Of a stretch of 52,133 nt of DNA, positions 9,764 to 50,987 are shown in pieces. A program made the translations under genes and the position numbers. The notes under the pieces are model-generated. The model was not told the DNA's origin. It worked only from the letters and a program-made list of their open reading frames with translations, and did no database searches. The stretch covers positions 1 through 52,133 of the forward strand of contig CAMWKG010000010.1 of the NCBI GenBank assembly GCA_947174785.1. Direction: 5' to 3'. The DNA is from an uncultured Mollicutes bacterium. GTDB taxonomy: Bacteria; Bacillota_I; Bacilli_A; Acholeplasmatales; Anaeroplasmataceae. Position 1 is the stretch's first letter, and each line of letters starts with the position of its first letter.

Positions 9764-9773
9764 AATAACACTC

Positions 9774-10196: not shown

Positions 10197-10207
10197 AATA
10201 CTCCTCC

Positions 10208-10485: not shown

Positions 10486-10498
10486 AAATATTTCCGCC

Positions 10499-11020: not shown

Positions 11021-11037
11021 ATATAGCGCCTCTTTTT

Positions 11038-11529: not shown

Positions 11530-11545
11530 ATTAAACTACCCCACT

Positions 11546-11573
11546 ATTATACTATTATACAATAAATTGTCAA
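11546..11573 (-). promoter_or_regulatory. Consensus sigma-A promoter for the YcxB-leuS operon
   Basis: The minus strand carries TTGACA (11568-11573), a 16-base spacer and TATAAT (11546-11551). A second TATAAT lies inside the spacer (11554-11559) but is too close to the -35 box to be used with it. The start codon of the first YcxB-like gene is 16 bases after the -10 box. Confidence 0.8.
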
Positions 11574-11583
11574 AAATAAAAAG

Positions 11584-11603
11584 TCCTAAGATAAATCTTA
11601 GGA
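11584..11603 (-). terminator. Second terminator downstream of uxaC
   Basis: A 9-bp stem (TCCTAAGAT with ATCTTAGGA) is followed on the minus strand by CTTTTTATTTTTG. It lies 84 bases after the uxaC stop and just before the YcxB operon promoter, so it would back up the first terminator and insulate the two units. Confidence 0.65.
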
Positions 11604-11658
11604 AATTTCTGTCATATAATTTCTACAATTATGGTTATAACTTATGAAAATAAAGAAA

Positions 11659-11681
11659 TTAGCCTCCAAAATGGAGGCTAA
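11659..11681 (-). terminator. Terminator of the uxaBAC operon
   Basis: A perfect 10-bp stem (TTAGCCTCCA with TGGAGGCTAA) has a 3-base loop and is followed on the minus strand by TTTCTTTATTTTC. It begins 7 bases after the uxaC stop codon. Confidence 0.85.
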
Positions 11682-11687
11682 ATCATA

Positions 11688-13100
11688 TTAAAATCCAAAG
11701 AATTCCTTTGCATTATTGTAGCAAACATCTTCTACAATCTTACCAAGTGTATCTAGTTCTTCAACTGGATATTGTCCAGACTCAACTAAATTACCTAGCA
11801 TTTGACATAACAAACGACGATAGTATTCATGACGAGGATATGCTAAGAAGCTTCTAGAATCCGTTAGCATACCTACTGACTGTGCAACTAGTCCTACCTG
11901 CATCAAAGTTTCTAAATTTTGACGCATACCATCCTGTTGGTCTAAGAACCACCAAGCAGTACCTACCTGAACACGGCCCTTTACGCCTTCCTTTTGGAAG
12001 CATCCGGAAAGAACAGTTAAAGCATAATTGTCTCTTGGATTTAAACAATAAAGAATAGTCTTAGGTAATTCATCTGTTTCATCTAAAGCACCTAATAAAG
12101 CAGATAGCTTAGCCATATAGTTTTGATCTTCAATTGCATCAAAGCCAGTATCTGGTCCAATCTTCTTAAGCATTGATTTTGAGTTGTTTCTTAAAGCACC
12201 AATATGATATTGCTGAACCCAGCCATGTTTATGGTATTCTTTACCTAAGAAGACTAATACATAGCCCTTATACCAATCCTGTTCAAGCTCACTCACTTCT
12301 TTACCAGCCATACCTTTTTTAAATACAGCATTAGCCTGGTCATATGTACAAGGTGCATAGTGAACAACATCAAGTGCATGGTCAGATAGACGAGAGCCCA
12401 TTTCATGGAAGAAATCAATTCTTTCAGCTAAAGCCTTCTCTAAATCCTTTAATTCCTTAATCTTATAACCTACAACACCTGCAAGCTGATTTACCCAGTC
12501 AGCAAACCAAGATAATTCAACATTAATTGCCTTATCAGGACGGAACGCAGGACGAACATGAACCTTAAGTGTATCATCTGCATTCATCTTCTTATGCCAT
12601 TCAAGGCTATCCACAGGGTCATCTGTTGTACAAACAGTATCTACCTTAAACTTATACATCATTTCTCTTGCAGTTAAGGTTTCTAGTTTTTTGTTTGCAG
12701 CATCCCAAATTTTCTTTGCATTTTTTTCATTGATGATATCTTCAATATCAAAGTATCTTCTCATCTCAAGATGAGACCAGTGATATAATGGATTTCCTAC
12801 AAAATAAGGCATAGACTCAACAAATTGCATATATTTTTTATAGTCATCATCTGGACCAGAAATAGAGTCCTCTTCATAGCCTCTTGCACGTAGGCTTCTC
12901 CACTTGTAGTGATCGCCATAACGATCACCAGCACCAAGCCAAACCTCAGCTAAATTGCGGAATTTTTTATCCTCATAAATTTCCTTTGGCTGAAGATGAC
13001 AGTGATAGTCAATAATTGGCATATGCTCTGCATGCTTATGATAAAGCTTTTTTGCTGTTTCTGTAGTTAATAAGAAATCCTTATCCATAAATTCTTTCAT
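11688..13100 (-). CDS. uxaC: Uronate isomerase UxaC
   Basis: UxaC isomerises galacturonate to tagaturonate and glucuronate to fructuronate, the first step of uronate catabolism. The 470-residue protein has the amidohydrolase-like metal site IIDYHCHLQPKEI with His33 and His35, and the family segments AGDRYGDHYKWRSLRARG, TTDDPVDSLEWH, and TDSRSFLAYPRHEYYRRLL near the C-terminus. AAGGAGG precedes the ATG. It is the last gene of the uxaB-uxaA-uxaC unit, 12 bases after uxaA, and is followed by a strong terminator. Confidence 0.97.
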   Translation of the reverse strand: MKEFMDKDFLLTTETAKKLYHKHAEHMPIIDYHCHLQPKEIYEDKKFRNLAEVWLGAGDRYGDHYKWRSLRARGYEEDSISGPDDDYKKYMQFVESMPYFVGNPLYHWSHLEMRRYFDIEDIINEKNAKKIWDAANKKLETLTAREMMYKFKVDTVCTTDDPVDSLEWHKKMNADDTLKVHVRPAFRPDKAINVELSWFADWVNQLAGVVGYKIKELKDLEKALAERIDFFHEMGSRLSDHALDVVHYAPCTYDQANAVFKKGMAGKEVSELEQDWYKGYVLVFLGKEYHKHGWVQQYHIGALRNNSKSMLKKIGPDTGFDAIEDQNYMAKLSALLGALDETDELPKTILYCLNPRDNYALTVLSGCFQKEGVKGRVQVGTAWWFLDQQDGMRQNLETLMQVGLVAQSVGMLTDSRSFLAYPRHEYYRRLLCQMLGNLVESGQYPVEELDTLGKIVEDVCYNNAKEFFGF

Positions 13101-19273: not shown

Positions 19274-22200
19274 ATGTTTAAAAAACTAAAATCTAAATCA
19301 CGAAGATTGAGTTTAATCGCATCCTTCTTCGTTTTAATTATAGCACTGTCAGGGTGTAGTTCAGCAGGTAAACCAACAGGAAACCTAGATAAGGACGCAG
19401 TTTATTTGTCTGCAGGTGATCAAAAAGTCACTAAAGGTGAACTTTGGAATGAGCTTCGCTGGAGTGCAAGCAGTGTATTAACAGACAAAATTACAGAAGT
19501 TGTTATGAAAGACTATGTGGAAAAAGTAAGTCTTATCATGGACAAGTCTTATACTGATCTTACAGATGATCAAAAGAAATTATTTGCAGATGAATTTTCT
19601 AATGCAGACTATGACAAATTGAAAGAGTCTTATGAAAGTCGTCTAGAAGATTATGTGATTGAAGATATTTACAATTTCAATTACGATTCAACCAATAGCT
19701 ATGATTCAGTAAAAGATGTAAATACATATGATGCTAAAAAATTAATCATTCAATATTGTGATGAAATTTATACAAATTACAATTTGAAAGAGATTAATAA
19801 TCAGCCTCTTCAAAATTTCGTTACTGAAGCTGTTGATAAAAGAGAAAATTATGTAACTATAGCAAAAGAATTAAAAACTATATACTATCTATCTTTAGCT
19901 AAGGAATTATTAGCATATTCTGTATTAGAAGATGATATCAAGGAAGCTTATGACAATAGAGATACAGATAATGAAGATGATTTAGGTTATTTTACAAAGT
20001 CTGAATATACAAATAAGTTTAAATCAGATTTTGCAAATCAATCTGACTTAAATTTGATTCTTATTCATTTCTCTACAGAACAAGAGTTCACTTCTACACT
20101 TCGTTCCTTTGGATTAAAGGTATATGATAACAATCTAGTTTATATACCATATCCTGAGGATGTTGAGACATTTGCAGATTATTGTAGCTATTATGATGAT
20201 ATGTCAACAAGCGATGTTAGAGATAGTCATCAAAGCTTAAACACTTTGGCTATTGCTCAAATCTACATTCAAATGTATAACTATCTATATGGCGGATATC
20301 GTGATTACTTATATGATGATTCCTATGCAAGCTACTTTAATAATGTAGAAGATTTAATTAAGATTACTTCTTCTATTCGTGACCAGTCACAATTGCTTGC
20401 AGCAAATGAAGAGGTTGAAATCAATAAGATTCGTGATGCTTTAATTGAGAAAAAGGATTCCTATGATGTTGACTCTATCTATACTAGAGAAGAAATAGAT
20501 AACATTTCCACTTCTTTCTCTACTTATTTATATGAGACTTTATGCTTACCATTCAAGGCCGAAGCAGATGATGATAGTCTTTGTTATTCTACTTCTACTC
20601 AAAGCTATAATAGTTCTTATTGGATTGCATTTAAATTCGGACAAGATGTAGATCAATATGAAGACATCTACAATAAGAGTACAGTTGATGATGATTTATA
20701 TGATAGCATTGCTGCAGATGAAGAATTAAAGGCAGCTATAGAAGAGCTTTTAAAGCAAGACAAAATGACTGATTCTAAAATTACTGCTGCAGTTAAAGAA
20801 AGAACTGATGAAGTTGAAGTTAAGATTTATGATGAAGCTTTAGAGATTTCTTATGCTACAAGCCATTCAGATTATTCTAAAACCTATGGTAAAGCTCCTA
20901 ATAGTAATGTTATTGCAACATTAAAGTATGACAAGAAGACATGGAATTTAAATATCGTTGAAAATAAAGAGGATGAAAAAGCATTAAATGATGGTGTTTA
21001 TGATATTCTTGAAAGACAAAACGGTATAACAACTGCTATTGATATTTTAAGTAAAAAGGTTGTTAAGCAAACACAGGCTTATAAGGATACAGCAAAAGAT
21101 ATCGATGATTATAAAACAACTATAGAATATGTATTGGCTGCATTCTCTAATGATTATTATGCTTCAAGTGGTTATTCTTCTTCTATTGGTAAATATAATT
21201 TCATGATGCTTTATTTCCATTCTGTAGATATTAACTTTATTGTTACTGAAATTTATCGTGTGAATGGTGCGGCAGCAAAAATATTAACAAACTATAACTC
21301 TAATAAACTATTAGAATTCTTCAAATCTTATTCCGATAATATTTATAATAACTATTTTTCAATAGGTGGTAAAAGATTAGTTGTTTACCTTGATGCTGAT
21401 GATGATTCTGAAAAGGATGAAGTTACAGAGTGGCGCGATGATCAAAAGCTATTAGCTCAAAAGCTGATTCGCCAAATTTATAACGAGGTTGCTTCTACTA
21501 CTGGTTCTCATGCAGATGCTCTATCCTCAATTGTTAGTGAAATCAATGAATCAGCACGTGCTAAATTTGAAAATAATCCAATTGCTCCAGAAAACAAATG
21601 GGCTGAATATCGTAAAGCAGGATTAAATGTAGAAATGGAAGACATTTCTGCAGATAATAGTACTACTTCTTTAGATTTTGCATTAAAGGCTAGATTATTA
21701 GAAATTTTCAAATCTTCTTCTTATAGTATAAATAATACTACTCCAACGGAGTATATGGAAGATTTACAAGATCCTAACACTGAAATATTACAAACAAAAG
21801 ATGGTTATAACCTACTTCTTGTAACCTCAGCTGATTTCCAAACTTCTGCTGAATTTAAAGAAGAGGATGATAAACTAGGTGTATTTAAAGATTTATCTGT
21901 TTATTATAATGAAGAATACCATCAGGTTGGAAGTGTTTATAACAACAATAAGCTTTTAACTATTGAACAAATTCGTTTATATGTTCTAGAATATGTTTCT
22001 AGTCAAACATCAAACCTTTCTCCATCTGCTATTTCTGCTGCGTTAGATAGCTTCTTATCTCCTGTAATTACAAGATATACAGCAAATGAAACTCAGAGAG
22101 ATATTGTTATTTACTTAATTGAAACAAAAGCTGGAGCTCTTAACTTTAGCGAGAATAAAGATCGTTTTGAAAAGATTTTAGAAATCAATCATAATGCTGC

Positions 22201-22327
22201 AGATGAGTATATTTCTATCTATTATGAGGAAGATTCTACAAACACTCTAAAAACTTATGAAAACTGGTGGAAGGATCTTCAAGAAATTGTTGCAGATATT
22301 CTATTAACGGAAGGAGAGAATGCATAA
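19274..22327 (+). CDS. Giant lipoprotein A, divergent parvulin/SurA-like foldase
   Basis: The 1017-residue protein has a basic start, a hydrophobic helix and the lipobox LSGC at about residues 25-28, so it should be lipidated at Cys28 and face outward. The mature start (YLSAGDQKVTKGELWNEL) resembles the N-terminal helix of SurA/PrsA-type chaperones. A degenerate parvulin-like region can be traced from GGKRLVVYLDADDDSEKDE (about residue 697) to DGYNLLLVTSA (about 843); the His normally found in the HILV motif is absent. It is rich in Tyr, Asp and Ser and has an acidic mature part. The downstream gene is a paralog with a better-kept parvulin motif. Foldase function is an inference; a structural role is possible. 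Confidence 0.7.
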   Translation: MFKKLKSKSRRLSLIASFFVLIIALSGCSSAGKPTGNLDKDAVYLSAGDQKVTKGELWNELRWSASSVLTDKITEVVMKDYVEKVSLIMDKSYTDLTDDQKKLFADEFSNADYDKLKESYESRLEDYVIEDIYNFNYDSTNSYDSVKDVNTYDAKKLIIQYCDEIYTNYNLKEINNQPLQNFVTEAVDKRENYVTIAKELKTIYYLSLAKELLAYSVLEDDIKEAYDNRDTDNEDDLGYFTKSEYTNKFKSDFANQSDLNLILIHFSTEQEFTSTLRSFGLKVYDNNLVYIPYPEDVETFADYCSYYDDMSTSDVRDSHQSLNTLAIAQIYIQMYNYLYGGYRDYLYDDSYASYFNNVEDLIKITSSIRDQSQLLAANEEVEINKIRDALIEKKDSYDVDSIYTREEIDNISTSFSTYLYETLCLPFKAEADDDSLCYSTSTQSYNSSYWIAFKFGQDVDQYEDIYNKSTVDDDLYDSIAADEELKAAIEELLKQDKMTDSKITAAVKERTDEVEVKIYDEALEISYATSHSDYSKTYGKAPNSNVIATLKYDKKTWNLNIVENKEDEKALNDGVYDILERQNGITTAIDILSKKVVKQTQAYKDTAKDIDDYKTTIEYVLAAFSNDYYASSGYSSSIGKYNFMMLYFHSVDINFIVTEIYRVNGAAAKILTNYNSNKLLEFFKSYSDNIYNNYFSIGGKRLVVYLDADDDSEKDEVTEWRDDQKLLAQKLIRQIYNEVASTTGSHADALSSIVSEINESARAKFENNPIAPENKWAEYRKAGLNVEMEDISADNSTTSLDFALKARLLEIFKSSSYSINNTTPTEYMEDLQDPNTEILQTKDGYNLLLVTSADFQTSAEFKEEDDKLGVFKDLSVYYNEEYHQVGSVYNNNKLLTIEQIRLYVLEYVSSQTSNLSPSAISAALDSFLSPVITRYTANETQRDIVIYLIETKAGALNFSENKDRFEKILEINHNAADEYISIYYEEDSTNTLKTYENWWKDLQEIVADILLTEGENA

Positions 22328-25149
22328 TGAGAAAGCATAACAAATTATTTCTAGTATGTAGTGCTGGATTATTAGCACTTTCTGTGGCTTCTTGTGGTAA
22401 AAAAGAAGTTAGAAATACCTCTATTCCTCTTGGAAATATTAATACTTCTGCTGTAGTTGCCTCTAATGGTGATGCAGTATTAAAAAATGATTTATTCTAT
22501 TCTAGACTTCGTTCTAAAGGATATAACACTGTTTTAAATCAAATTAAAAAATCTTTATTTGCTGAAGAATATGAATTTGTAAAATCTCAAATTAATTTAT
22601 CTGATTCTACTGTTACAGATGAAGAACAAGATTTATTTGATTCTTATGCAATGGATATCTTTGGATCTTCTTCTGCTACTCAAATCAAGAATTTAGAAGA
22701 AAAAGATAAAGACAAAGCAATTCAAAAGTATATAGACAATGTTTATCTAAGAGGTATAACTGTAACAAAAGAAAATTGCTTAAGCTATACTTTAGAACAG
22801 GAAAAAATCAAATTTTCCTATATTCCTCAAGAAATTATCGAGGAGAAGCTACTTTCCATTGCTCAAGATAAGGCAACTAAGGATGCTTTAGATAAGATTG
22901 TTGATGAAGAAAAGATTACTGATGATGATGACAAGTTAGTTGTTAATAGTAACTATATTTCTGAAACAAACTACTCTAATTATTATAATACCCATCAACA
23001 AACCTATGGTACATATCGTGCCATCATCATTCAATTTAACAATTTGAATGAAGCTCGTAATGTTATTGCTTCTGTAGAACAAAGAATGGGACATACACTT
23101 ACAGGTAGTAATGCTGATGATTATGCCCTATCATTCTATGTGAACCTATATAATACTTATTATAATTACAGAACTCCATTAGATGTACAAAATCCATTTA
23201 GCAATACTAGTGAAGATTCTAAGACTGTATTTGTTGTAAATAAGGATAAAAATGAGTTATCTGATATGTCTTCTTCTATATCTAATTTAGTTACTAAAAC
23301 TTTAGATGTAGATGGATCATACATTAAGCAGCCATTCAATCAAAACAATAAATATGTTATGATTTATAGAGGTGCTACAGAATTCGAATTAAACAAGAAA
23401 TATAATATCACTCCATACAGTGAACAAATTGAATGGAACGATTTAAAAGAGCATGAAATTGCTTTTGAAGAAGTAAAGGCAGAGGTTAGAGACAATTTAA
23501 TCGATAACAAAATAAGCTCTTATTCTACAACAGTATTAGAAAAGAGACTTAAAAATGCTGATATTGAAATCTATGATCCTTACTTTGAATATCAATTCAG
23601 AAATTCTTATTCTGATTATTATGAATTAATTACTCCATCAAAATTCAATAATAACCTTATATTTAAGTTAACATACACTAATCCAGATACTAAGGTTTCT
23701 TCTACTACTGAATATACAGTAGATGATTTCTATCAAGAACAATTCAAGCAAAGCGCATTATCTATTGTTGTAGAACACTTTAGATTAGAGTTTGTTTATA
23801 ACTTCAGAAACCTATTATTAGAAGATGATCAGATTAGTGATATTGAGGAAGAATTGAATAAGTCAATTACTGCATTTAACAAAAATGAAAATGCTGCTTA
23901 TCCTTCTTCTGTTGGATTGGAAACATATTTACTTGGAAACTTTGGTTATACAACAAAGGAAGATGCTTTAAAATATTATAAGCTTGCTTCTAATGCTGTA
24001 TTAAATAAGTATTTAAGTCAAAGTGTATTTGATGAATGGGCTGAAAAGCTAGAAGATGGTACATATCCAGATTCTCACACTATTGATACTACAAAATTAA
24101 ATATATTAAAAAATATATTAGATGCTGGAAACAAGAATTATTCAAACCTTTTCTCTATCAATATTGATCATATCTTAATTTACATAGATGATGATGGAGA
24201 TGGTAGTCCAGATGATCCTAAGGATTTTTTAAAGAACTTCAGTGATGCTCAAAAAGAAGAGTTCAATCAATCCTTATTAGCTTTAGCAAATGCAATTTAT
24301 GATGAAGCAAACTGTGAAGAATTGACTAAATCCAACTCTATATTAGATATACTTAAATATATCGTTGGAGCTTATAACCGTAATGAAAAATTATTCTCTC
24401 ATCCTGATCAAACTTGGGAAACCTATAAAAAGTATAATTTCCTATTAACTGCTGAGTCTCTATCTTCTAGTGGAGATACAACGCAAAGTAATGTAGGTAA
24501 TTATGTTGAGGAATTTGGAACTTACGTAAAAGAGCTTTATAAAAAGGCTGTTGAAAATGATTTAAAGATTGAAGATAAGAAATCTACATTCTACTTTACT
24601 GAAAGCCTTAATAAAAATCCAAGCAAATTTGAAGATTTATGTGCAACTCAATTTGGTTATCATATGATTGTAGTAAATAGCTATACAAAGCCTTCTACTA
24701 CTAGAAGCTTAGCTTCTTCAGATCAATATGGTTATTATAAGGACATTGAAATATTATTAAATGAAAAAGACACAGATACAACAGATGATAACATCTTTGT
24801 AACTATTTCAGATGTTTATAATGATTTAGAAGATACTGCTACAATGAACCAGTTATTTGTATACTACGTACAAAAACAAAAAGCTGCTACTTCTTCATTA
24901 GATTCATCTTTACGTCAAGTATTAAGTTCTATGTTTGATGATGCTATATCTCGTTATACTTCATCTTCTTTCCAAAATTTCTTATTATTCAAAGAATTAA
25001 ATATTGTTTCAGATTCAACTACATTAACTGAACAATTAGCAGATTATGAGGGATATTTAAAGCGTATTTCTCAAGATTATAAGACTGATGATGATTTTGA
25101 TTCATGGTATAATAATACTTTAGATTGGTCTAGACCATACGAAGATTAA
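22327..25149 (+). CDS. Giant lipoprotein B, parvulin-like (PrsA/SurA type)
   Basis: Its start overlaps the stop of lipoprotein A (TAATG), so the pair is coupled; a longer reading frame starting inside gene A is not used because the signal peptide begins at MRKHNKLFLV. The lipobox is SVASC (Cys at about residue 23). The 940-residue protein shares with A the pattern W-x-x-Y-K/R and a parvulin-like region: DHILIYIDDDGDGSPDDP (about residues 611-628) then GYHMIVVNSY (about 776-785), which match the start and end strands of parvulin prolyl isomerases (HILV, GYHI). The acidic DDDGDGSPDD insert right after the His motif looks like a calcium-binding loop. Probably an extracellular folding factor. Confidence 0.7.
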   Translation: MRKHNKLFLVCSAGLLALSVASCGKKEVRNTSIPLGNINTSAVVASNGDAVLKNDLFYSRLRSKGYNTVLNQIKKSLFAEEYEFVKSQINLSDSTVTDEEQDLFDSYAMDIFGSSSATQIKNLEEKDKDKAIQKYIDNVYLRGITVTKENCLSYTLEQEKIKFSYIPQEIIEEKLLSIAQDKATKDALDKIVDEEKITDDDDKLVVNSNYISETNYSNYYNTHQQTYGTYRAIIIQFNNLNEARNVIASVEQRMGHTLTGSNADDYALSFYVNLYNTYYNYRTPLDVQNPFSNTSEDSKTVFVVNKDKNELSDMSSSISNLVTKTLDVDGSYIKQPFNQNNKYVMIYRGATEFELNKKYNITPYSEQIEWNDLKEHEIAFEEVKAEVRDNLIDNKISSYSTTVLEKRLKNADIEIYDPYFEYQFRNSYSDYYELITPSKFNNNLIFKLTYTNPDTKVSSTTEYTVDDFYQEQFKQSALSIVVEHFRLEFVYNFRNLLLEDDQISDIEEELNKSITAFNKNENAAYPSSVGLETYLLGNFGYTTKEDALKYYKLASNAVLNKYLSQSVFDEWAEKLEDGTYPDSHTIDTTKLNILKNILDAGNKNYSNLFSINIDHILIYIDDDGDGSPDDPKDFLKNFSDAQKEEFNQSLLALANAIYDEANCEELTKSNSILDILKYIVGAYNRNEKLFSHPDQTWETYKKYNFLLTAESLSSSGDTTQSNVGNYVEEFGTYVKELYKKAVENDLKIEDKKSTFYFTESLNKNPSKFEDLCATQFGYHMIVVNSYTKPSTTRSLASSDQYGYYKDIEILLNEKDTDTTDDNIFVTISDVYNDLEDTATMNQLFVYYVQKQKAATSSLDSSLRQVLSSMFDDAISRYTSSSFQNFLLFKELNIVSDSTTLTEQLADYEGYLKRISQDYKTDDDFDSWYNNTLDWSRPYED

Positions 25150-30862: not shown

Positions 30863-32329
30863 CTACTCCACTAAAATTGTTATCATATCATTTAAACTAC
30901 GAATTGTATAGGTAGGCTCTGCAGCTATAATCTGTTCCTTACGGTCGGAATATAGGACGCCTACAGTGTCAATGCCAGCATTTTTTCCTGCTTCAATATC
31001 TCCAACACCATCGCCAACATACAAGGCCTTTTTACTATGAAGCATCTCCATAGCCCTTAAAATCCCCTCAGGATCTGGTTTAGGATTCTTTACATCCTCT
31101 TCACCAATAACCACTCGTACATTATCAAGCATACCAAAAAGCTCCAAGCCATGTTCTACTAAATCGGTCTTCTTTGAGGATACCACTCCAACCTTATACC
31201 CTTTTCTAGCTAAGGTCTTAATCAAACTCTTGGCTCCTGGAAAGGCAGTAACCACTTCATCATGCATAGCAACATTATACTCTCGATAATATTTTACCAT
31301 CTCTTCAATCTCTTTTTCATCCTCACTATATCTAGAGAAGGTTTGACGTAAGGAAGGTCCAAAGAAGGAATCCAATTCTTCATCTGTCAATACCTTTTCA
31401 GGACGGAAATGCTCAAATGTATGGACAAAGCTTCTATTAATCAATTCTCTAGTATTTAGAAGTGTTCCATCTAAATCAAATAAAACTGTATCATAGCGAT
31501 TTTCTTTTATCGTTTTCATTAGCTCATGATAATTTACTCTAGGTCCCACAAAGCGTTTTGCAACCAATAGGGCAATACCACAAACAATAAAGATAATACT
31601 AATTAAAATTGACATTGGTACTGGACCTGCCATAAGGATTTCATTTGCTCCACTATTACTTCTTAAAAGCTCAATTGGAATTCTAACCAGTCCATACCAA
31701 ACTAGATACCCACCAATCAAATCTCCTGATTCTAGCTTTTTAAATTTTCTTCTTGCAACTAGCATTAGGACGAGCCCTACTAAATTTAATAAAGACTCAT
31801 ATAAGAAGGTCGGGTGACGATATTCCCCAGCTATATACATATTTTCTGTAATAAAGCTTGGAAGTAAATTTTTAAATACTTGAACATTTTTAACTACAGG
31901 TCCATAAAGCTCATGGTTACAAAAATTTCCCCAGCGGCCACAAATTTGACCAATTAGAAACCCAGGAGCTACAACATCTAAAATCCTATAAAAGGAAAAC
32001 TTACGTACTCTACAATAAAGATATATCGTAAGTAACGCAGCTAAGACACCACCCTGTATAGCTAGTCCACCATCCCATACTGCAAAAATATCTGTAAAGG
32101 AATGGATTTTGTCTGCATTAAAAATATCCCACCAAATACGGGCTCCTAAGATGGAACAAGGAAGTACAATCACAACACCCGTATAAATATAATCACTAGG
32201 AATTCCGATTTTTTTGCCTTCTCTTACTCCAGCAATTACCGCAAGAATTACACCAATCAAGATGCATACTGCATACCAGTGGATTTCCAGTCCAAAAAGA
32301 GAAAAGGATGGATTTATATAATTAATCAT
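30863..32329 (-). CDS. lgt: Prolipoprotein diacylglyceryl transferase fused to PpaX-like HAD phosphatase
   Basis: Residues 1 to about 270 are Lgt, the seven-helix membrane enzyme that adds diacylglycerol to lipobox cysteines; the signature GRWGNFCNHELYG is at about residue 131 and RHPTFLYESLLN at about 170. Residues about 280-488 are a complete HAD enzyme of the PpaX pyrophosphatase type: FDLDGTLLNT (about 285), VGVVSSKKTDLV, NPKPDPEGI and YVGDGVGDIEAGKNAG. In Bacillus subtilis hprK, lgt and ppaX are separate neighbouring genes; here the last two are one reading frame. PpaX removes pyrophosphate made by HprK dephosphorylation of HPr. The start overlaps hprK by 8 bases. Confidence 0.95.
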   Translation of the reverse strand: MINYINPSFSLFGLEIHWYAVCILIGVILAVIAGVREGKKIGIPSDYIYTGVVIVLPCSILGARIWWDIFNADKIHSFTDIFAVWDGGLAIQGGVLAALLTIYLYCRVRKFSFYRILDVVAPGFLIGQICGRWGNFCNHELYGPVVKNVQVFKNLLPSFITENMYIAGEYRHPTFLYESLLNLVGLVLMLVARRKFKKLESGDLIGGYLVWYGLVRIPIELLRSNSGANEILMAGPVPMSILISIIFIVCGIALLVAKRFVGPRVNYHELMKTIKENRYDTVLFDLDGTLLNTRELINRSFVHTFEHFRPEKVLTDEELDSFFGPSLRQTFSRYSEDEKEIEEMVKYYREYNVAMHDEVVTAFPGAKSLIKTLARKGYKVGVVSSKKTDLVEHGLELFGMLDNVRVVIGEEDVKNPKPDPEGILRAMEMLHSKKALYVGDGVGDIEAGKNAGIDTVGVLYSDRKEQIIAAEPTYTIRSLNDMITILVE

Positions 32330-41846: not shown

Positions 41847-41866
41847 AGGCAGGGAAAACCCTGCCT
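41847..41866 (-). terminator. Terminator of the 1711-residue repeat protein gene
   Basis: An 8-bp GC-rich stem (AGGCAGGG / CCCTGCCT) with an AAAA loop is followed on the minus strand by TTTTTGTTTGCTTTTATT. It begins 12 bases after the stop codon. Confidence 0.9.
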
Positions 41867-41878
41867 AATTTATACATT

Positions 41879-44800
41879 TTACAATGATAGTGATATAGAT
41901 TGTATTGTATACTGTAAAGCTAGAATATCTAGTTTCTCACACACAATTTTAGAATCAGTAAGAAGTTTAAACGAAGTATATACTTGTTTTGTAGATACTG
42001 GATAATTGATATTATATCTTCCTGGAATTAAAGTACTTGCCTGATATGTATAAAGTACGTCGTTAATATTTTCAGTTTGAGAGGTTGTCGTAAACCACTG
42101 ATATGCCTTTACTCCAGAACCCTTATCCTCACCTAATGTTTGAGATATGATATATTGGTAGACATCTGAATTAGAAATGGCCTCTAAGACAATTTCTTTA
42201 TTTGTCATCAATAAAATTTCTCCTATATCTAAAACAAGATGATCAAAGGAACCATTATCAGGGTTTAGAAGCTCAATACCTCTAATAATATTCAATATTT
42301 CAGGCTTGCTTAATATACCTACAGAATCATTATCACAATGCTTGCTAGTATCTAAATTTGTACTATTTACATCTATACTAACCGTATCTTGATTTAAAAC
42401 CTTTTGAGAAATCGTCGTTCTAATAATTTCACTATTTACTAACGCTTGTTTTTCTGCCTCAGTAGTAGGTACAGCAATTTCATCAAAGCTTAAATTTGTA
42501 GGATCATCCATACCAATTCCTATAGTTAATGCTAGTAATAGGTTAGACAATTCCTCCTGCTCAATATATTTTTCTATTGAGCTTTGATATTGATAAGTAT
42601 ATGGAACCTTCAATTCATCTATGATGCAAACAGATGAGGTATCCACCATAATCTTACTTGATAATGTAGAAGATACAATTATAGATGCAGTCATTACATC
42701 TGCTTCTGTCTTAGTTCTTGGTAATGTCAAATGGCTAAGCTCAAAATTGCTTGCATTAATAGAATCCTCTGTTGTTGCAAAAAGTGCATTAAAGAAGGCC
42801 TTGAATTCCTGCTTATCGATTTGATTCTTTGTTTCATTTTTCAAAGTATCTACTGGTTGGATTACTATATTTGGAATCACAAGATCTTGAATTGTCACAA
42901 ATTTCTCTGATAATGTTAATTGAAGAATTTGAGATTCTAAGATGGTATCTGTCTTTGAAGAGGTAAGCTCAATATTTTCCAAATTAGAATTTAAATTTGA
43001 CATTTCAAGCTGGTCTGTATCAAACAATACAAACATAGCAGATAACACACTTTGTAGCTCTGTTGTTGCAATCAAATTCTCGATTTGATTTTGAATAGAC
43101 ATTTCTTCTGTTGTAATGCTTCTTGGAATGGATAATTCATCCATACCTCCTAGTTTATGAGAAATGGTTGCCGTAATAATATTAGAATCTAACAATACTG
43201 CTAAATCCTTTTTAGTTATAGTTAAAGAAGCAAATTCCTCACCGATAGTATCAACAACAATAGAGTCATCCCCTAAGATAATAAACATTAAATTTAGTAA
43301 TTTGGTCAATTCTTCTGTATCAATATTATTAATCATCATTCCATTAATTATTTGTTCTTTTGTTGCATATTTATCCAAAATTACAATTTGATTATTCTCA
43401 GATAATTTTGATGATACAGTTGCATTTAAAATACTAGATTGAGTTATATAAGGTATAGATTCTTTTTTAATCATCAAGCTTGTAAGCTGATGATCCAAAT
43501 CATTAACCATGATTACATCTGATTCTAATAGCTTAAACATTGCTTCAAATAGATTAGTTAATTCATCCTTATTCACAATATGTCCTGATTCTTTATTAAC
43601 AAAATCTGATGCTTTCGCACAAGATAGCGGAACATAAATCTGATGTAATTTAGACATTTTATTAGTTATCGTAGCACGAAGGATGGAAGAATTTAAAATG
43701 ATTGGAGTTGCATCTGCCCTAAAGGTTAAATCAAATAGGTCATCATCTAATTCTTTAACAACAATTTCACTTCGATTAAATAGTTTAAATACAGCTTTAA
43801 ATAAATCATTAAGAGCCTGCTGCTCAACAAGATTATTATTATAAAGCTCAGTAGGAACATGGAAAATTTGAGTTATTTTATTGCTTAAGGAAGCATTTAA
43901 AATTGCTGAAGCACAGATATCATCTATTCCGTTTTCTCTTAATTTTAAATCATCTTGCAACGTTTCAAAATTAAACTCAGCTGGAATTTTTCCATTTTCA
44001 TCCTTATCAATAAAGGTTTCAACAGCCTTTAACATTAAATAGATTTCATCATCTAATGTGTCATCTGAATCACCAAGCCACTTATTTCCTGTTAAATCTA
44101 AGTCTGTCTTAAATTTCTCAAAATCTATTTGATATGGCTCTGGAATAACTAAAAAGCCTTCTTCATTCTTGTCTAGCATTAATTGAATTAATGTGGCTGT
44201 AATAGTTTTACTCTTGCTTAATTCAGCCTTATTTTCAAATATCGCATTATAATTAATTTTCATTTCTTTTGACTCATCAAAGAAAACAATTTGTTGAATG
44301 TCAACAAAAATATCGCGAAGCTCTGTAGCCTGGATAACATTTACACATTTTTCTGTAGTAGTTGGTGCATTTACTTCCTCTAAAGAAGCTCTTGCAACAA
44401 CAATTTGAAAGCCATCTAAATCAGTGACCATATCACTTATTGTGTATCTTAAAACCTTAGAAGAACAAATTTGATTCAATGTTTCTTTATCTAGATTCAG
44501 AAGATCAGAAGGTTGGATGTTACCATTTAGTAATTCATTTATTAAATACTTTTCTTCTTCTACTTTCACTTCAGCAATACTATGTATAGCTTCAATTAGA
44601 ACACAAATTTCTCCATCGCCACTCTCACTAATCCATCTTTCAGGATCATCATAGGTCATAGGTAAAATAATCTGTTCTTGTGAAGAAGAAACTCCAATAA
44701 TAACATTGGCAAGTGTTCCTTGTAACAATAAAGATTCTTTGAGCTTCAAATCAATATAATCATTTGAGAAGATATGAGCATAATCAATATTATCTGGATG

Positions 44801-47014
44801 ATCCATAACTTCTACAATTAAATCTTTACAGTTAGAAAGCAAATCAGCAATGATTTCAATTTCACTATGCTTAATGATTTTACAGCCTTCTTTTATTTCT
44901 ATTATATCTTCTGGTAAATAGAGCTTAAAACCACCATTACCAAAATCAGCATAAGTTAAATAGGTAGATAAAATGTAATATACTAATTTAGAATTGATTA
45001 TATTTTTAATCAGTGTTGTCTCTGTCCCATCCACTGTAATTGTCTTAGTCAAAACCTCTAGCATTTCCTTAATCTGTTCTGACTGAACACTACCCTCACC
45101 ATTTTTCGTCATAGCAATGAGCAAAGGTCCTCCGCCATTTTTAAGGAGAAGCTTTACTGTGGAAAGTAATATACTACACTCTCCATCCTTACCAACATAA
45201 TCAATGTCCTTAGGAATCCTAACATTTTCATCTTTTGCAATATCAACAACGATTTTATCAATTTCTTTTCCTACAATTGAAGATTTAAACACAACATCTA
45301 ATAACAAAGATGATTCTAGTTGTTCAGTTAGTTCATCAAATGCTGTTTCCATATCCTTTGCATTTTCTCTTTCGAAAATATATGCAAGATTTTCAATCAT
45401 CTTATCATTATCCTTGTCATATACCTCATAAGCAATAGAAAGTAAAGGATCACATGCATTTAACAAAATATTAAATTCCTTTATCCAATCGATATCGTCA
45501 GGGACTTCAAATTCTATTTCTTCTTCAATTAAAGAAGTTGATGCATATGTATATAAACCTTTTATAATCTTATTTCCAATAGTAGCTCTTGAATCAAATA
45601 AGGATAATTTTTGAATGGTAGGAATAAAATTCTTAGCTATTAGAATCATTTGCTTATTAGAAACAAGCTTTGATTCTTCTTCACTTGTATTCAATTGTGG
45701 TTTTTCATTTTGGGCAGCATTTACTTCTGCAACAACCTGAACTAATCCTTTGAATAAATTCTTCATATCAGCTTCAGTTGCTAAATCTGTCACCTTTATT
45801 CCATCTTCACTTTTAAATAATTGATTTACAAGACCAACGATTCTTTCATCAGAAACAACAATATCAATATGATTTACTAATGAAGTTAAGGAGGATAAGC
45901 ATAAATTTGACATAAAGGTTTTACCGTCAAATTCATCAATCAATTTAGAAAATTCTTCTGCAAATCCCTCATTGCCCATAGTAGATATTAAAATCTGCAT
46001 CTGCCTGTCATTATCTACACCTGCAACTAAATCCTCTATATCCTTTGTTTCTCCATATTTTAACATCAAAGCAAAGGTGCTATTGATAAAATGAACGTAT
46101 TCTCCTATTTCATCTCTTAAATAAAACTTTTCATTTTCTACACCAAGATTTTCATCATTAAGTCTACCTTGCAAAACAATATCAGCAAAATAAAAGTAAA
46201 ATGGTGTGTGACTTGTGTCCTTTATAGAATTCAGTATCTGGAAAATACCTGTATTTCCCATGGCACACACATAGCTATAATAATCATATGCTTCATTCCA
46301 TGTTTTATCCTGAAACTCAACAGTCTGTTCATCTTTTAACTGGTCTCTTTGAGGTAGGTTTGTTCCACCTGTTACAATATAGATTAAGCTTCCCAAAAAA
46401 GAAAAACAAATGATTGCAGTAAATGTAGATCTCACCCCACCAATTAAACTTCCCAAAAGTCTTCTTCGCTTATATGGATGATTTACCTCACCATTTTGAT
46501 ACTTTCTTGTTTCTTTTCTAATCTTCCTTCTTACAGGGTACGCAATTAAATAAATAATATATAAGAAGAATAATAAGAAACCATATAAAATATAGCATAG
46601 GATTGCAATGACAAGATGGTAAGCCATATCTACTAAAGTATTGATATAAGCTGCATTTTCCACTATCAAATAATATGGTATAGATTGCTTATCACTTATC
46701 TCTTCTGCAATCTTCTGTAAAAGCATTTCATGCAAGGTTAGAAAGTCCTTATTTACTGATAGGATACTTTGTAGGCTTGTTCCAAATTTTCCTAATATTC
46801 CATTTATAAATTTAACCATATTCGCATCTAGATTAGGATTATTTACAATGCATAAATATACAATTAAACAAATTACACCAGCTGCCAACATGTGAATAAA
46901 CAATATCAAACTCTTTCTAAATCCACGAATACAACCAACTAAAATCCCACATAAAACTGTGAAGATAAATAGAAAGGTTGGTCCCCATGTAATAAAGAAT
47001 TTTATCATGTCCAT
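41879..47014 (-). CDS. Giant membrane protein: CvpA-like domain plus about 12 repeats
   Basis: The 1711-residue protein has about four membrane helices at roughly residues 9-33, 37-57, 128-160 and 192-215. The motif RRRLLGSLIGGVRSTF before the last helix and GILVGCIRGFRKSL after the first resemble CvpA-type proteins. The rest, about 1490 residues, is predicted to lie outside the cell. From about residue 660 to 1640 it is built of degenerate repeats of about 85 residues, each with a helix like ELTNLFEAMFKLL, then SSILNATVSSKL and a strand ending in IP. Earlier, weaker copies reach back to about 480. No anchor, signal peptide or enzyme motif was seen. GAGGAGGTG precedes the ATG. Confidence 0.85.
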   Translation of the reverse strand: MDMIKFFITWGPTFLFIFTVLCGILVGCIRGFRKSLILFIHMLAAGVICLIVYLCIVNNPNLDANMVKFINGILGKFGTSLQSILSVNKDFLTLHEMLLQKIAEEISDKQSIPYYLIVENAAYINTLVDMAYHLVIAILCYILYGFLLFFLYIIYLIAYPVRRKIRKETRKYQNGEVNHPYKRRRLLGSLIGGVRSTFTAIICFSFLGSLIYIVTGGTNLPQRDQLKDEQTVEFQDKTWNEAYDYYSYVCAMGNTGIFQILNSIKDTSHTPFYFYFADIVLQGRLNDENLGVENEKFYLRDEIGEYVHFINSTFALMLKYGETKDIEDLVAGVDNDRQMQILISTMGNEGFAEEFSKLIDEFDGKTFMSNLCLSSLTSLVNHIDIVVSDERIVGLVNQLFKSEDGIKVTDLATEADMKNLFKGLVQVVAEVNAAQNEKPQLNTSEEESKLVSNKQMILIAKNFIPTIQKLSLFDSRATIGNKIIKGLYTYASTSLIEEEIEFEVPDDIDWIKEFNILLNACDPLLSIAYEVYDKDNDKMIENLAYIFERENAKDMETAFDELTEQLESSLLLDVVFKSSIVGKEIDKIVVDIAKDENVRIPKDIDYVGKDGECSILLSTVKLLLKNGGGPLLIAMTKNGEGSVQSEQIKEMLEVLTKTITVDGTETTLIKNIINSKLVYYILSTYLTYADFGNGGFKLYLPEDIIEIKEGCKIIKHSEIEIIADLLSNCKDLIVEVMDHPDNIDYAHIFSNDYIDLKLKESLLLQGTLANVIIGVSSSQEQIILPMTYDDPERWISESGDGEICVLIEAIHSIAEVKVEEEKYLINELLNGNIQPSDLLNLDKETLNQICSSKVLRYTISDMVTDLDGFQIVVARASLEEVNAPTTTEKCVNVIQATELRDIFVDIQQIVFFDESKEMKINYNAIFENKAELSKSKTITATLIQLMLDKNEEGFLVIPEPYQIDFEKFKTDLDLTGNKWLGDSDDTLDDEIYLMLKAVETFIDKDENGKIPAEFNFETLQDDLKLRENGIDDICASAILNASLSNKITQIFHVPTELYNNNLVEQQALNDLFKAVFKLFNRSEIVVKELDDDLFDLTFRADATPIILNSSILRATITNKMSKLHQIYVPLSCAKASDFVNKESGHIVNKDELTNLFEAMFKLLESDVIMVNDLDHQLTSLMIKKESIPYITQSSILNATVSSKLSENNQIVILDKYATKEQIINGMMINNIDTEELTKLLNLMFIILGDDSIVVDTIGEEFASLTITKKDLAVLLDSNIITATISHKLGGMDELSIPRSITTEEMSIQNQIENLIATTELQSVLSAMFVLFDTDQLEMSNLNSNLENIELTSSKTDTILESQILQLTLSEKFVTIQDLVIPNIVIQPVDTLKNETKNQIDKQEFKAFFNALFATTEDSINASNFELSHLTLPRTKTEADVMTASIIVSSTLSSKIMVDTSSVCIIDELKVPYTYQYQSSIEKYIEQEELSNLLLALTIGIGMDDPTNLSFDEIAVPTTEAEKQALVNSEIIRTTISQKVLNQDTVSIDVNSTNLDTSKHCDNDSVGILSKPEILNIIRGIELLNPDNGSFDHLVLDIGEILLMTNKEIVLEAISNSDVYQYIISQTLGEDKGSGVKAYQWFTTTSQTENINDVLYTYQASTLIPGRYNINYPVSTKQVYTSFKLLTDSKIVCEKLDILALQYTIQSISLSL
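42100..45110 (-). repeat. Protein-level repeat region in the giant membrane protein
   Basis: Twelve copies of the pattern S-x-I/V-x-x-x-T/S-I/L-S-x-K are spaced by about 235-295 bases, centred near 42160, 42415, 42670, 42925, 43170, 43415, 43665, 43900, 44195, 44455, 44715 and 44980. Examples are NSSILRATITNKM, QSSILNATVSSKL, DSNIITATISHKL, ESQILQLTLSEKF and NSEIIRTTISQKV. Two more likely copies lie near 45285 (KSSIVGKEIDKI) and 45575. At the DNA level the copies have diverged, so this is an old duplication array rather than an active tandem repeat. Confidence 0.8.
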
Positions 47015-47046
47015 AAAAGCACCTCCTCCATAGACAATATATCACT

Positions 47047-47075
47047 ATTGTACCAAAAAAATATCTAATCAACAA
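47047..47075 (-). promoter_or_regulatory. Candidate promoter of the giant repeat protein
   Basis: TTGTTG (47070-47075), 17-base spacer, TACAAT (47047-47052) on the minus strand, about 33 bases before the start codon. Both hexamers are imperfect. Confidence 0.5.
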
Positions 47076-47168: not shown

Positions 47169-47243
47169 AGGGGTATGGTGTCAATGGTAGCACGCGGGTC
47201 TCCAAAACCTTTAGTGTGGGTTCGAATCCTACTACCCCTGCCA
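47169..47243 (+). tRNA. tRNA-Trp (anticodon CCA)
   Basis: The 75-base gene folds as a tRNA: acceptor stem AGGGGTA with TACCCCT (47233-47239), discriminator G, encoded CCA end (47241-47243), T-arm with GGTTCGAATCC and anticodon loop CTCCAAA, giving CCA for Trp. The sequence closely follows Bacillus tRNA-Trp. The outermost anticodon-stem pair (27-43) is a C-T mismatch and the next a G-U pair, which is a little unusual. A promoter and a terminator flank it, so it is transcribed alone. Confidence 0.95.
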
Positions 47244-47319: not shown

Positions 47320-48660
47320 TTATTTCGTCAACCAATATCCAGTTTTATTAGAACCTATTCGTTCTACTAAATCCTTTTCCTTTAATGATTTAATAGTTCT
47401 TTCAATCGTTCTTAAAGTTAAAGAACATTGCTTTGCAATATCTTCCATAGTAAAATTTTTATTTGTTTGAATTGCTGCAAGGACCTTTTGTTCAGTTTTG
47501 TTCAATTTTATCCCGACATTTATCCCGACATTTATCCCGACATTTAATTCATGTGCGACCAAGTTTCTACTATTAATAACTTCTTTATCAAAAGGCAAAA
47601 CCACATTAATATAATTTTCTTCTATATCAAAAGCATCTTTTCCATAGATCTTAATCACATCTGGTATACCATGACCTGTTTGTTCAACATAATCCAAGTC
47701 AGATAAGATTCTCATCAAAGATTTGTTTCTAGGTGTGCTTACTCCTTTAAAAAACATTTCTTTTGTTTGACCTTGTGGAAGTCCACCATGAGAAATAATT
47801 TCTATTCTATCACTAAAAATATAAACTGCTGGCTCAACCTTTGTCCAATCGTTATGAGCAATAGCATTGATAAAAATTTCTCTCAAAGCATCTTGATTAA
47901 GCAATCTCTTATCTACTCTCTGAGCTCCTTGAATTACAGACATAGTATAATTTTCTGCTTCTAAACGATTAATCATCCTATCTATAGCAACCAATAAGCA
48001 TTGATATCCATATTCGCTTTTTTCTACCAGTTCAGATTTATCTATACCTCTAAATCTAGCTATTTTAATAGAAATTCTATTCTCATCAGATAGTAATTCG
48101 GCTAATAAATTATACTTACCATTTCTTGTTTTCAAATCAAGATTATCTTCAAATGTGTCATCAGAAAGATGAAATTTCTTTTCACCATAATATATTTTTA
48201 ATTGCTTAAAACTTAACTTAGTGCGGTTGCTTTCAATCTGTGTTATATCATTGTTAGATAAATAAATTGAACCAAATTTATTTTCAATTTGCTGTTCAGT
48301 CATACTTCTACAGCTTGTACCAACTCTAATATAACACCCCTTAGAACTTCTGCCATACTTTTTAATATAATATAACGAATCGCCCTTAGATACCTTTACT
48401 TCAATAATCATCTTACCAGCTTCATACTTAGCAGAAACTTCTATGAGTTCTTGAGGGTTTGGCAATATTCCATTAGAGATAATGTCTGCAATATTCTTCA
48501 TCACTTCATCTAATTTATTTACACCTACAACCATTCCATCATCTTCGACCCCAATATAAATAACACCATTATGGGTATTAAGAAAAGCTACTACTTCCTT
48601 TTCAAATGTTTCATTAAGATTTCTTTTTAATTCAATGCTTTCTGTTTCTTGAAAAATCAT
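47320..48660 (-). CDS. AlbA_2 / HATPase_c_4 / winged-helix transcriptional regulator
   Basis: The 446-residue protein has an AlbA_2 (Schlafen-like) DNA-binding domain (residues 1 to about 115; ESIELKRNLNETFEKEVVAFLNTHNG, YIGVEDDG), a GHKL-type ATP-binding domain (about 255-345; LREIFINAIAHNDW, DRIEIISHGGLPQG, TGHGIPDV) and a C-terminal winged helix (about 388-446; TMEDIAKQCSLTLRTIERTIKSL). A linker with NVGI repeats (about 372-384) joins the last two. Such proteins are common in mobile and defence-rich regions and are thought to be stress-responsive regulators; the target is unknown. It has its own promoter, which overlaps the end of the next gene. Confidence 0.88.
   Translation of the reverse strand: MIFQETESIELKRNLNETFEKEVVAFLNTHNGVIYIGVEDDGMVVGVNKLDEVMKNIADIISNGILPNPQELIEVSAKYEAGKMIIEVKVSKGDSLYYIKKYGRSSKGCYIRVGTSCRSMTEQQIENKFGSIYLSNNDITQIESNRTKLSFKQLKIYYGEKKFHLSDDTFEDNLDLKTRNGKYNLLAELLSDENRISIKIARFRGIDKSELVEKSEYGYQCLLVAIDRMINRLEAENYTMSVIQGAQRVDKRLLNQDALREIFINAIAHNDWTKVEPAVYIFSDRIEIISHGGLPQGQTKEMFFKGVSTPRNKSLMRILSDLDYVEQTGHGIPDVIKIYGKDAFDIEENYINVVLPFDKEVINSRNLVAHELNVGINVGINVGIKLNKTEQKVLAAIQTNKNFTMEDIAKQCSLTLRTIERTIKSLKEKDLVERIGSNKTGYWLTK
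47508..47543 (-). repeat. In-frame 12-bp tandem repeat in the AlbA_2 regulator
   Basis: Three perfect copies of TTATCCCGACAT stand in a row, with a partial fourth, inside the coding region. They encode NVGI repeats between the ATP-binding domain and the winged helix. Because the unit is 12 bp, gain or loss of copies keeps the frame and would only change linker length. Confidence 0.95.
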
Positions 48661-49346: not shown

Positions 49347-50888
49347 TCAAATATTTATATTCTTACATTTTATAATAAAATATTTTTTGAGATTATTATG
49401 TTCTTCAACCTGTATTTTTGATTTATTTAATCTAATTAGAGGAACTATACCACCATTTGTATAAATAACCAAATCTTCACGTATCTCATTAAATTTGTTA
49501 CCACAAATAAATTTTGAATCAATAATATTATCACCATCTGCTTTATCTTTTAAAATCCATTCATAATTACTATCATAAGAATACACTCCCTGACATAGTG
49601 CATAATCAGTAGCATTAATTCTGTTTCTTTTTTCGGACATCAAATGTTTTTCTACATCATCTGCACTAACTAATGATACTCCAAATTCTTTATCAAGAAG
49701 TTCCCTTTCTTCCGTATTAAAAGCACAATCAAAAAATGTAGTATTTAACCAGGTTTGAATGAAAGATCCTTCAAACACATTTGCAACTCTGGAATTGATT
49801 AATTCATCGTATGTCATATTAGAAAATGGCTGAGAATCTATAATATCCTTTGTGCATAAATATATATAACTTCTATCTTCATATAATTTTCTCCATACTA
49901 ATGGTTCATATAAAAAATAGTAATTTGTGTTAATACTAAACTTATTTTTAAATTGATAACTATTAGGCAAGCCAGATACTAAGCAAGGTCTAAATCGAGT
50001 AAATTTCACAGCACGTATCTGCTTATTCTTTAAATCAATATATTTCATATAGTCTTCAATTTTACCATTATAGCTATATTCATAGGAAGTCCATTTATCA
50101 AATTCTGGAACCTCTACATTCAAATCTTTAATTTCATCATCTAATAGTTTATTTTGGGGATAGTGCCCGAATAAATAAAAATCTTCATCTACTAGTATTG
50201 GTTCAACCGAAGCTAAAACACGTTCAAAAAAAGAAACTTCATCTCCTTGTCTAACATTAAAATCGTTAATATTATTACCTTTTGTTATGAATTCTACCAT
50301 TTCCTGTTTTTGAGATTCAGAATAGTTGTTACTTAATAATTGCTTTATCCTATCATTATCATAATTATTTAGCTCAATATAATCATTTCGCAACTTCAGC
50401 TCTAATTCATTTTTATTTTCAATTATCTTAATTACTTCTTCAGATAAGTACTGCTCATTAATGAAATCTCTAAAATTATAACCATTTACATTTATTATAA
50501 TAATTTTAGGCTTGCTTTCCCTCTCTAATAAATACTTTATTTCATGTGCTGTTACACAATTTTCATTTATTTCATTTTTATCATTTGTAAAATTAACAGT
50601 GAAATTTTTATCTAAAAAAATAATAAAATAATTAATAGAATCAATTAATTTTTTTAATGCTTCATAATCAGTATATCTTCCACAAGCAATATAATCTGAA
50701 TAATATACATTTCCAAAATATCTAGTGTCATATAAGGATACATTTATTTTTTGTATATAGTCATAAAAATTTCTAGCTAATATTGCTGTTGAATCTCTAT
50801 AACATAGAAATATATTATATTCTTTTGATAAATCAACTTTAAATTTATCTTTTATTTTTTTTTCTAACTCTTCATCTATGTTTTTCAA
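49347..50888 (-). CDS. TIR domain-DUF6273 fusion protein
   Basis: Residues about 20-145 follow a TIR domain: strand YNIFLCYRDS, helix, SLYDTRY, then INYFIIFLDKNF, and the Glu-containing helix CVTAHEIKYLLERE, where the catalytic Glu of NAD-cleaving TIR domains normally lies (about residue 117), followed by KPKIIIINV. Residues about 235-470 match DUF6273: FYLFGHYPQN, VWRKLYEDRSYIYLCTKDIIDSQPF, FIQTWLNTTFFDCAFNTEERELL and a region with ATDYALCQG. I use TTG at 50888, with GGGG 9 bases upstream; a TTG three codons earlier has none. TIR proteins in such regions often act in phage defence; that role is inferred. Confidence 0.8.
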   Translation of the reverse strand: MKNIDEELEKKIKDKFKVDLSKEYNIFLCYRDSTAILARNFYDYIQKINVSLYDTRYFGNVYYSDYIACGRYTDYEALKKLIDSINYFIIFLDKNFTVNFTNDKNEINENCVTAHEIKYLLERESKPKIIIINVNGYNFRDFINEQYLSEEVIKIIENKNELELKLRNDYIELNNYDNDRIKQLLSNNYSESQKQEMVEFITKGNNINDFNVRQGDEVSFFERVLASVEPILVDEDFYLFGHYPQNKLLDDEIKDLNVEVPEFDKWTSYEYSYNGKIEDYMKYIDLKNKQIRAVKFTRFRPCLVSGLPNSYQFKNKFSINTNYYFLYEPLVWRKLYEDRSYIYLCTKDIIDSQPFSNMTYDELINSRVANVFEGSFIQTWLNTTFFDCAFNTEERELLDKEFGVSLVSADDVEKHLMSEKRNRINATDYALCQGVYSYDSNYEWILKDKADGDNIIDSKFICGNKFNEIREDLVIYTNGGIVPLIRLNKSKIQVEEHNNLKKYFIIKCKNINI

Positions 50889-50987
50889 TTTTACCAACCC
50901 CTATTACAAAAACTCTTTTCTATATACTAATATTAACAATACTATTTTTTAATAGTATCATATTTTTCGTCAATAAATAACAAAATC

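What the first reader, a model, noticed from the sequence alone, without database searches (positions are those of the whole stretch)
41879..47014. 1711-residue CvpA-like protein with a long array of about 85-residue repeats
I do not recognise this architecture: a four-helix CvpA-like membrane domain followed by about 1490 extracellular residues, most in at least 12 degenerate repeats with the pattern S-x-I-x-x-x-T-I-S-x-K then a strand ending in IP. It has its own promoter and terminator and is the largest gene in the window. Such a rod or ring-forming protein could bridge the membrane and the wall or surface. Function is inference; the repeats are visible in the sequence.
Basis: partly seen in the sequence, partly recalled or inferred. 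Interest (0 to 1): 0.78.

Follow-up and report, generated by a model that had tools for sequence, protein, structure and literature searches.

The report
Giant membrane-anchored repeat stalk protein
The gene encodes a very long protein held in the cell membrane by a small four-helix base (a CvpA-type domain) that pushes out a chain of about a dozen repeated units; the same design, not listed in the domain libraries searched, recurs in a large branch of Bacilli that includes both walled and wall-less bacteria, and its job is still unknown.

Summary
Confirmed. 41879..47014 (-) encodes 1711 aa, the largest ORF in the window. Residues 1-215 are a CvpA-like four-helix membrane domain. The rest (net charge about -121) is predicted outside the cell. 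A repeat of period 84 fills residues ~620-1648: 12 units by profile, 8 clear in a leave-one-out test. The full-length protein matches no Pfam or NCBIfam family; neither AlphaFold model has a significant PDB match. Relatives with names are Anaeroplasmataceae and other Acholeplasmatales. The N-terminal module heads ORFs of ~1,000-6,000 aa in 101/160 genomes of the order and 133/395 of the class (a few weak class hits are short CvpA). A repeat profile trained on the window protein alone also finds the array in other families of the class (up to 22 units), and in no shuffled or neighbouring protein. Repeats are kept unit-for-unit between species (dN/dS ~0.12). A two-TM partner, also without a Pfam family, lies just downstream in 23 loci. 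The giant occurs in genomes with and without the SEDS wall polymerase, so a membrane-to-wall bridge is not its general role. Best reading: a CvpA-anchored surface stalk or envelope scaffold. The architecture is well supported; the function is inferred.

The parts
41879..47014 (-). giant CvpA-headed repeat protein, 1711 aa, whole coding sequence with stop
   Evidence: single copy in its genome; dN/dS about 0.12 against a relative with 82% protein identity
46370..47014 (-). residues 1-215: CvpA-like membrane domain, four TM helices, N-out/C-out
   Evidence: weak PF02674 match in 11 of 26 family members, best 6.6e-5, window 0.02; a class member passes the Pfam cut-off, 31.4 against 29.3 bits; hhalign to canonical CvpA prob 83, E 8.5e-6 over columns 14-54; topology; AF2 pLDDT about 75-90
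45155..46369 (-). residues 216-620: membrane-proximal helical region; residues about 216-305 are the part best kept across the class
   Evidence: alignment A1; class matches mostly cover model columns 10-305; AF2 mostly helical
42071..45118 (-). residues 633-1648: array of 12 repeats, period about 84 aa; model per unit: helix, strand-helix, strand-helix, helix, beta hairpin
42341..44635 (-). residues 794-1558: stretch that holds the 8 units significant in the leave-one-out test (the unit at 877-965 within it is degenerate)
43973..44008 (-). residues 1003-1014 DKDENGKIPAEF: a single EF-hand-like loop (position 12 not canonical)
   Evidence: ion binding not tested
41882..42070 (-). residues 1649-1711: C-terminal tail, low confidence; no TM segment or sorting signal seen
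47022..47029 (-). Shine-Dalgarno GGAGGAGG
   Evidence: read
47047..47075 (-). putative promoter: -10 TACAAT 47047-47052, -35 TTGTTG 47070-47075, spacer 17
   Evidence: read by eye; not called by the scanner
41847..41866 (-). intrinsic terminator after the gene

Best explanation
A CvpA-anchored extracytoplasmic stalk or scaffold. The four-helix CvpA-like domain is the membrane base, with both ends outside. A conserved helical collar sits next to the membrane, and an acidic array of about 12 alpha/beta repeats of 84 aa projects outward with a free C-terminus. The length differs between species because middle repeats are duplicated or lost while the first and last units stay fixed. It probably works as a spacer or scaffold at the cell surface that presents or holds other surface components, in lineages that use neither sortase anchoring nor, often, a murein wall. 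In Anaeroplasmataceae it probably acts with a two-TM partner protein encoded next door. Shown by computation: gene, CvpA-like base, repeats, conservation, spread, partner synteny. Inferred: extracellular location (charge rule), rod shape (AlphaFold), scaffold role, physical contact with the partner.
For: Real repeats, also found by the same window-only profile in giants of other families, while no shuffled giant and none of 434 neighbouring proteins passes 30 bits. Consistent N-out/C-out charge pattern in 26 homologues; acidic exported part, about -38 and -83. Repeats match unit-for-unit between species at both ends, with shifts in the middle; dN/dS 0.05/0.67 in the membrane domain and 0.14/0.89 in the repeats, so kept by purifying selection with a gradient away from the membrane. 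Confident models, mean pLDDT 80.9 and 82.2, many repeat stretches near or above 90. Spread: 101/160 genomes of the order, 133/395 of the class. Kept where SEDS is absent; no sortase in the own genome. The literature reports loss of sortases and repeated loss of peptidoglycan in this part of Bacilli (PMC10868615). Partner gene just downstream in 23 loci.
Against: No experiment places it outside the cell. No ligand, catalytic or wall-binding domain is visible. The partner is not next to the gene in the window genome (it is on another contig) and was not clearly found in Acholeplasmataceae giants, so it is not an obligatory neighbour. pTM is only 0.61-0.64, so the overall rod geometry is uncertain.
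Confidence: 0.55

Rival explanations
1. Adhesin: the repeats are a fibre that binds host mucus, feed particles or other microbes.
For: Membrane-proximal part more conserved than the distal repeats; several named relatives are gut or rumen MAGs; giant repeat surface proteins of lactic acid bacteria are proposed adhesins (PMC12863079).
Against: No tip domain, beta-solenoid, Ig-like or lectin domain found; repeats are individually conserved rather than phase-variable or homogenised; one copy per genome as a rule; spread over many genera and families, which suits a housekeeping part of the envelope better.
Confidence: 0.2
2. Bridge between membrane and peptidoglycan.
For: The window genome has a SEDS protein and three penicillin-binding transpeptidases.
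Against: Giant present in SEDS-less genera and in single-contig genomes without SEDS such as G038, G052 and G061; no LysM, SH3b or other wall-binding domain matched; no sortase in the own genome.
Confidence: 0.1
3. Envelope transport machine: the CvpA domain, perhaps oligomeric, forms a membrane passage and the repeats are a conduit or docking arm for proteins, lipids or glycans.
For: E. [quoted passage not shown] conserved two-TM partner, which in several genomes is followed by galU, a nucleotide-sugar gene.
Against: No groove-type fold match; Foldseek finds nothing at E <= 0.001; lengths from about 1,000 to 6,000 aa do not suggest a fixed gap to span.
Confidence: 0.1
4. Ordinary CvpA protein with a passive extension (stress sensor or protease-like relative such as MarP).
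For: Four TM helices plus an exported domain has precedent in MarP-type proteases (PMC4992679).
Against: No protease domain; the genome also has a separate canonical 243-aa CvpA; a repeat array kept by purifying selection is not passive.
Confidence: 0.05

Closest known systems
CvpA / Colicin_V family, Pfam PF02674 (E. coli CvpA; here the 243-aa CvpA of the same genome)
   Same: four TM helices, G-x-x-RGF-x-K/E motif after TM1, LG-x-x-x-G-x-x-R motif before TM4; weak to significant profile matches
   Different: an exported part of about 1,490 aa with repeats; the window protein itself is below the Pfam cut-off (15.3 against 29.3 bits); own conserved membrane-proximal region
MarP (Rv3671c and its M. 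avium homologue), four-TM periplasmic serine protease
   Same: four N-terminal TM helices followed by an exported domain (PMC4992679)
   Different: no protease domain; four times longer; repeats
Giant1-5 surface proteins of Apilactobacillus kunkeei (PMC12863079)
   Same: very large extracellular repeat proteins of Bacilli; rods with alpha-helical repeats
   Different: those carry an N-terminal beta-solenoid and C-terminal SH3b-like domains and are described as loosely attached; here a four-TM membrane base and alpha/beta repeats. Not compared by sequence here
Canonical sortase-anchored surface proteins
   Same: presumed surface display
   Different: anchored at the N-terminus in the membrane; no sortase in the genome

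Membership tests
CvpA / Colicin_V (PF02674) | profile match above the curated cut-off | tested here: inconclusive
   window protein 15.3 bits against 29.3; 11 of 26 relatives match weakly; one class member of the same family reaches 31.4 bits
CvpA / Colicin_V (PF02674) | four TM helices with the RGF-x-K/E and LG-x-x-x-G-x-x-R motifs | tested here: met
   motif set from own knowledge plus alignment A6
CvpA / Colicin_V (PF02674) | profile-profile similarity to canonical CvpA | tested here: met
   hhalign probability 83, E 8.5e-6, but over 41 columns only
MarP-type membrane protease | trypsin-like protease domain after the four TM helices | tested here: not met
   no Pfam protease match in the whole protein
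sortase-anchored surface protein | signal peptide, C-terminal LPXTG-type signal and a sortase in the genome | tested here: not met
   no C-terminal sorting signal in the sequence; no sortase in G000
wall-binding anchor protein | murein-binding domain (LysM, SH3b, PG_binding, OmpA-like) | tested here: not met
   no match up to E = 1 in Pfam
HEAT/ARM or other known solenoid repeats | fold match to a solved repeat protein | tested here: inconclusive
   top Foldseek rows are helical solenoids but at E 0.2 or worse and probability 0.08 or less; no VIA-align match at Z >= 2 for the repeats

The most novel reading that the evidence does not exclude
A class-wide but undescribed envelope structure: a CvpA-based membrane platform carrying an extracellular rod of an unregistered repeat family, working with a two-TM partner, retained in Bacilli that remodelled or lost their murein wall.
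Probability: 0.3. Interest if true: 0.78.

Novelty: new variant of a known kind. Interest (0 to 1): 0.55.

Why it matters
Bacilli of the Acholeplasmatales and related orders lost sortases and, repeatedly, peptidoglycan (PMC10868615); how they organise their surface is poorly known. One large gene found in about a third of sampled genomes of the class, with a membrane base, a repeat family absent from Pfam, NCBIfam and PDB matches, and a candidate partner, is a concrete target. It would also give the ill-understood CvpA domain a well-defined context: an export-facing anchor. The repeat profile makes the family easy to annotate.

Tried and rejected
Whole-protein Pfam and NCBIfam scans: only chance-level rows. 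BLASTP self-comparison found no repeats; the profile approach was needed. Profiles of both halves against PDB sequences: nothing. Foldseek against PDB: no E <= 0.001. VIA-align: best Z 5.6 for the N-terminal model on unrelated helical proteins, taken as noise; none for the repeats. The large multi-repeat models weaken these fold searches, so a new fold is not claimed. HDOD, RNase_H and SIM_C rows in class giants were taken as chance. Calcium-binding repeats: considered because of one EF-hand-like loop, dropped because it occurs in a single unit. Wall-lessness of the window species was my first guess from taxonomy; it is not supported, as SEDS and PBPs are present. Searching genome contigs with the diverse alignment A1 failed, so only close relatives have names. 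Paper searches for giant CvpA proteins found none.

Full report
What was claimed and what is there. The ORF 41879..47014 on the minus strand starts with ATG behind a strong Shine-Dalgarno sequence, encodes 1711 aa and is the largest ORF of the window. A convincing intrinsic terminator follows; the promoter is plausible but weak and was read by eye. A divergent tRNA-Trp gene lies upstream at 47169-47243. Downstream are nrdD and nrdG by their sequences, then ligA and uvrA; these look like unrelated neighbours.

The membrane base. Four hydrophobic segments occupy residues 10-215. In 26 homologues the TM1-2 loop (net +3.2) and TM3-4 loop (net +7.2) are basic and all other segments are not, so the N-terminus and everything after TM4 are predicted outside. 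The window protein scores 15.3 bits against PF02674 (cut-off 29.3), 11 of 26 relatives match weakly, and a relative from another family of the class (L139) reaches 31.4 bits. hhalign with the canonical CvpA of the same lineage gives probability 83 and E 8.5e-6 over TM1-2. The canonical 243-aa CvpA is encoded elsewhere in the same genome. I call the base CvpA-like and do not file the window protein as a formal Pfam member.

The repeats. A profile built from 12 hand-anchored units shows units from about 633 to 1648. Because that is circular, each unit was left out in turn. The unit at 794-882 and all seven units between 978 and 1558 score 21-50 bits against at most 15.6 for 1000 shuffles each. 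The units at 617-705, 702-790, 877-965 and 1558-1646 are at or near shuffle level alone, but they match the equivalent unit in the relatives. Hydrophobicity autocorrelation peaks at 84 and 168. Units 1-5 and the last two of the window protein match the same-numbered or equivalent end units in the relatives, while units 6-9 shift in register in the more distant ones, so the array changes length in its middle. dN/dS is about 0.12 overall, with the lowest dN in the membrane domain. The repeats are thus old and individually constrained.

Structure. AlphaFold2 with eligible relatives gave mean pLDDT 80.9 for residues 1-800 and 82.2 for 790-1711. Residues 216-640 are almost all helical. Each repeat is helix, short strand-helix twice, helix, then a beta hairpin that leads into the next unit. 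pTM of 0.61-0.64 means the long-range shape is uncertain. No PDB sequence or fold match was significant; since the models are long, this does not prove a new fold.

Who has it. The closest named loci are Anaeroplasmataceae, Anaeroplasma and other Acholeplasmatales MAGs. With the N-terminal profile, 101 of 160 genomes of the order (23 of 28 genera) and 133 of 395 genomes sampled over the class match, mostly at the head of an open frame of 1,000-4,500 aa and once 6,056 aa. Some weak hits are short CvpA proteins. No match was seen in the listed genomes of the small-genome genus g24 of the same order, which I take to be phytoplasmas (inference). The window-only repeat profile then finds arrays in giants of other families: 22 or more units in L136, 22 in L141, 19 in L138, 15 in L140, 10 in L139. 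As a control, 35 of 70 giants (some loci appear twice) score above 30 bits, against none of the shuffled giants and none of 434 other proteins. In Acholeplasmataceae giants the repeats are mostly beyond this profile.

A partner. A protein of about 370-540 aa with a TM helix at each end of an exported domain and a charged cytosolic tail, without a Pfam family, lies 50 bp to 2.2 kb downstream of the giant in 23 loci. It is present in all 11 genomes of the genus searched, including the window's own (G000:C31:21347-22561), where it sits beside galU and apart from the giant. The four strongest hits outside the order are also in genomes with a giant. A functional link is inferred from synteny.

Wall or no wall. 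The own genome has a SEDS protein and three penicillin-binding transpeptidases, in line with the report that 40-60% of Anaeroplasmataceae genomes carry peptidoglycan genes (PMC10868615). But only 21 of 160 genomes of the order have SEDS, and many with the giant have none, including single-contig genomes. A murein partner can therefore not be the general rule. The own genome has no sortase.

Reading. The best-supported account is a CvpA-anchored surface stalk or scaffold of adjustable length. Adhesin, wall bridge and transport platform remain as rivals with lower odds. Novelty lies in the combination: a CvpA-type base, an unregistered repeat family, and class-wide conservation. A four-TM base with an exported domain is known from MarP (PMC4992679), and giant surface rods are known from other Bacilli (PMC12863079), so I rate it a new variant of a known kind.

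Noticed in passing
window 19274-22327 and 22267-25149, + strand: Two tandem large proteins with lipobox-like N-termini (1017 and about 942 aa), no Pfam, NCBIfam or PADLOC match in the libraries tried for each; the start of the first mature part (VYLSAGDQKVTKGEL) resembles PrsA/SurA-type foldases by eye.
   Followed up: partly
window 49347-50897, - strand: 516-aa protein whose N-terminus looks like a TIR domain by eye, no Pfam or PADLOC match; near a Schlafen/AlbA_2 transcription-regulator-like gene (47320-48660).
   Followed up: partly
L141:2650-11475 and 11582-12499; L135:2-8383 and 8665-11661: Two CvpA-headed large proteins in tandem in genomes of other families of the class (second one in L135 judged by eye), so the gene may have been duplicated locally.
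   Followed up: no
L116:9030-10562 (G000:C31): In the window genome the partner protein ends in a long Lys/Ala/Thr-rich histone-H1-like cytosolic tail (KPAAKKSTASKSTTAKKPTTKK), whereas other lineages have acidic tails.
   Followed up: no
window 30863-32329, - strand: Prolipoprotein diacylglyceryl transferase fused to a HAD-type hydrolase in one 488-aa ORF.
   Followed up: no
L137:2948-10861: In one family of the class the giant sits between ribosomal protein genes (rplU, rpmA) and an obgE-like gene.
   Followed up: no
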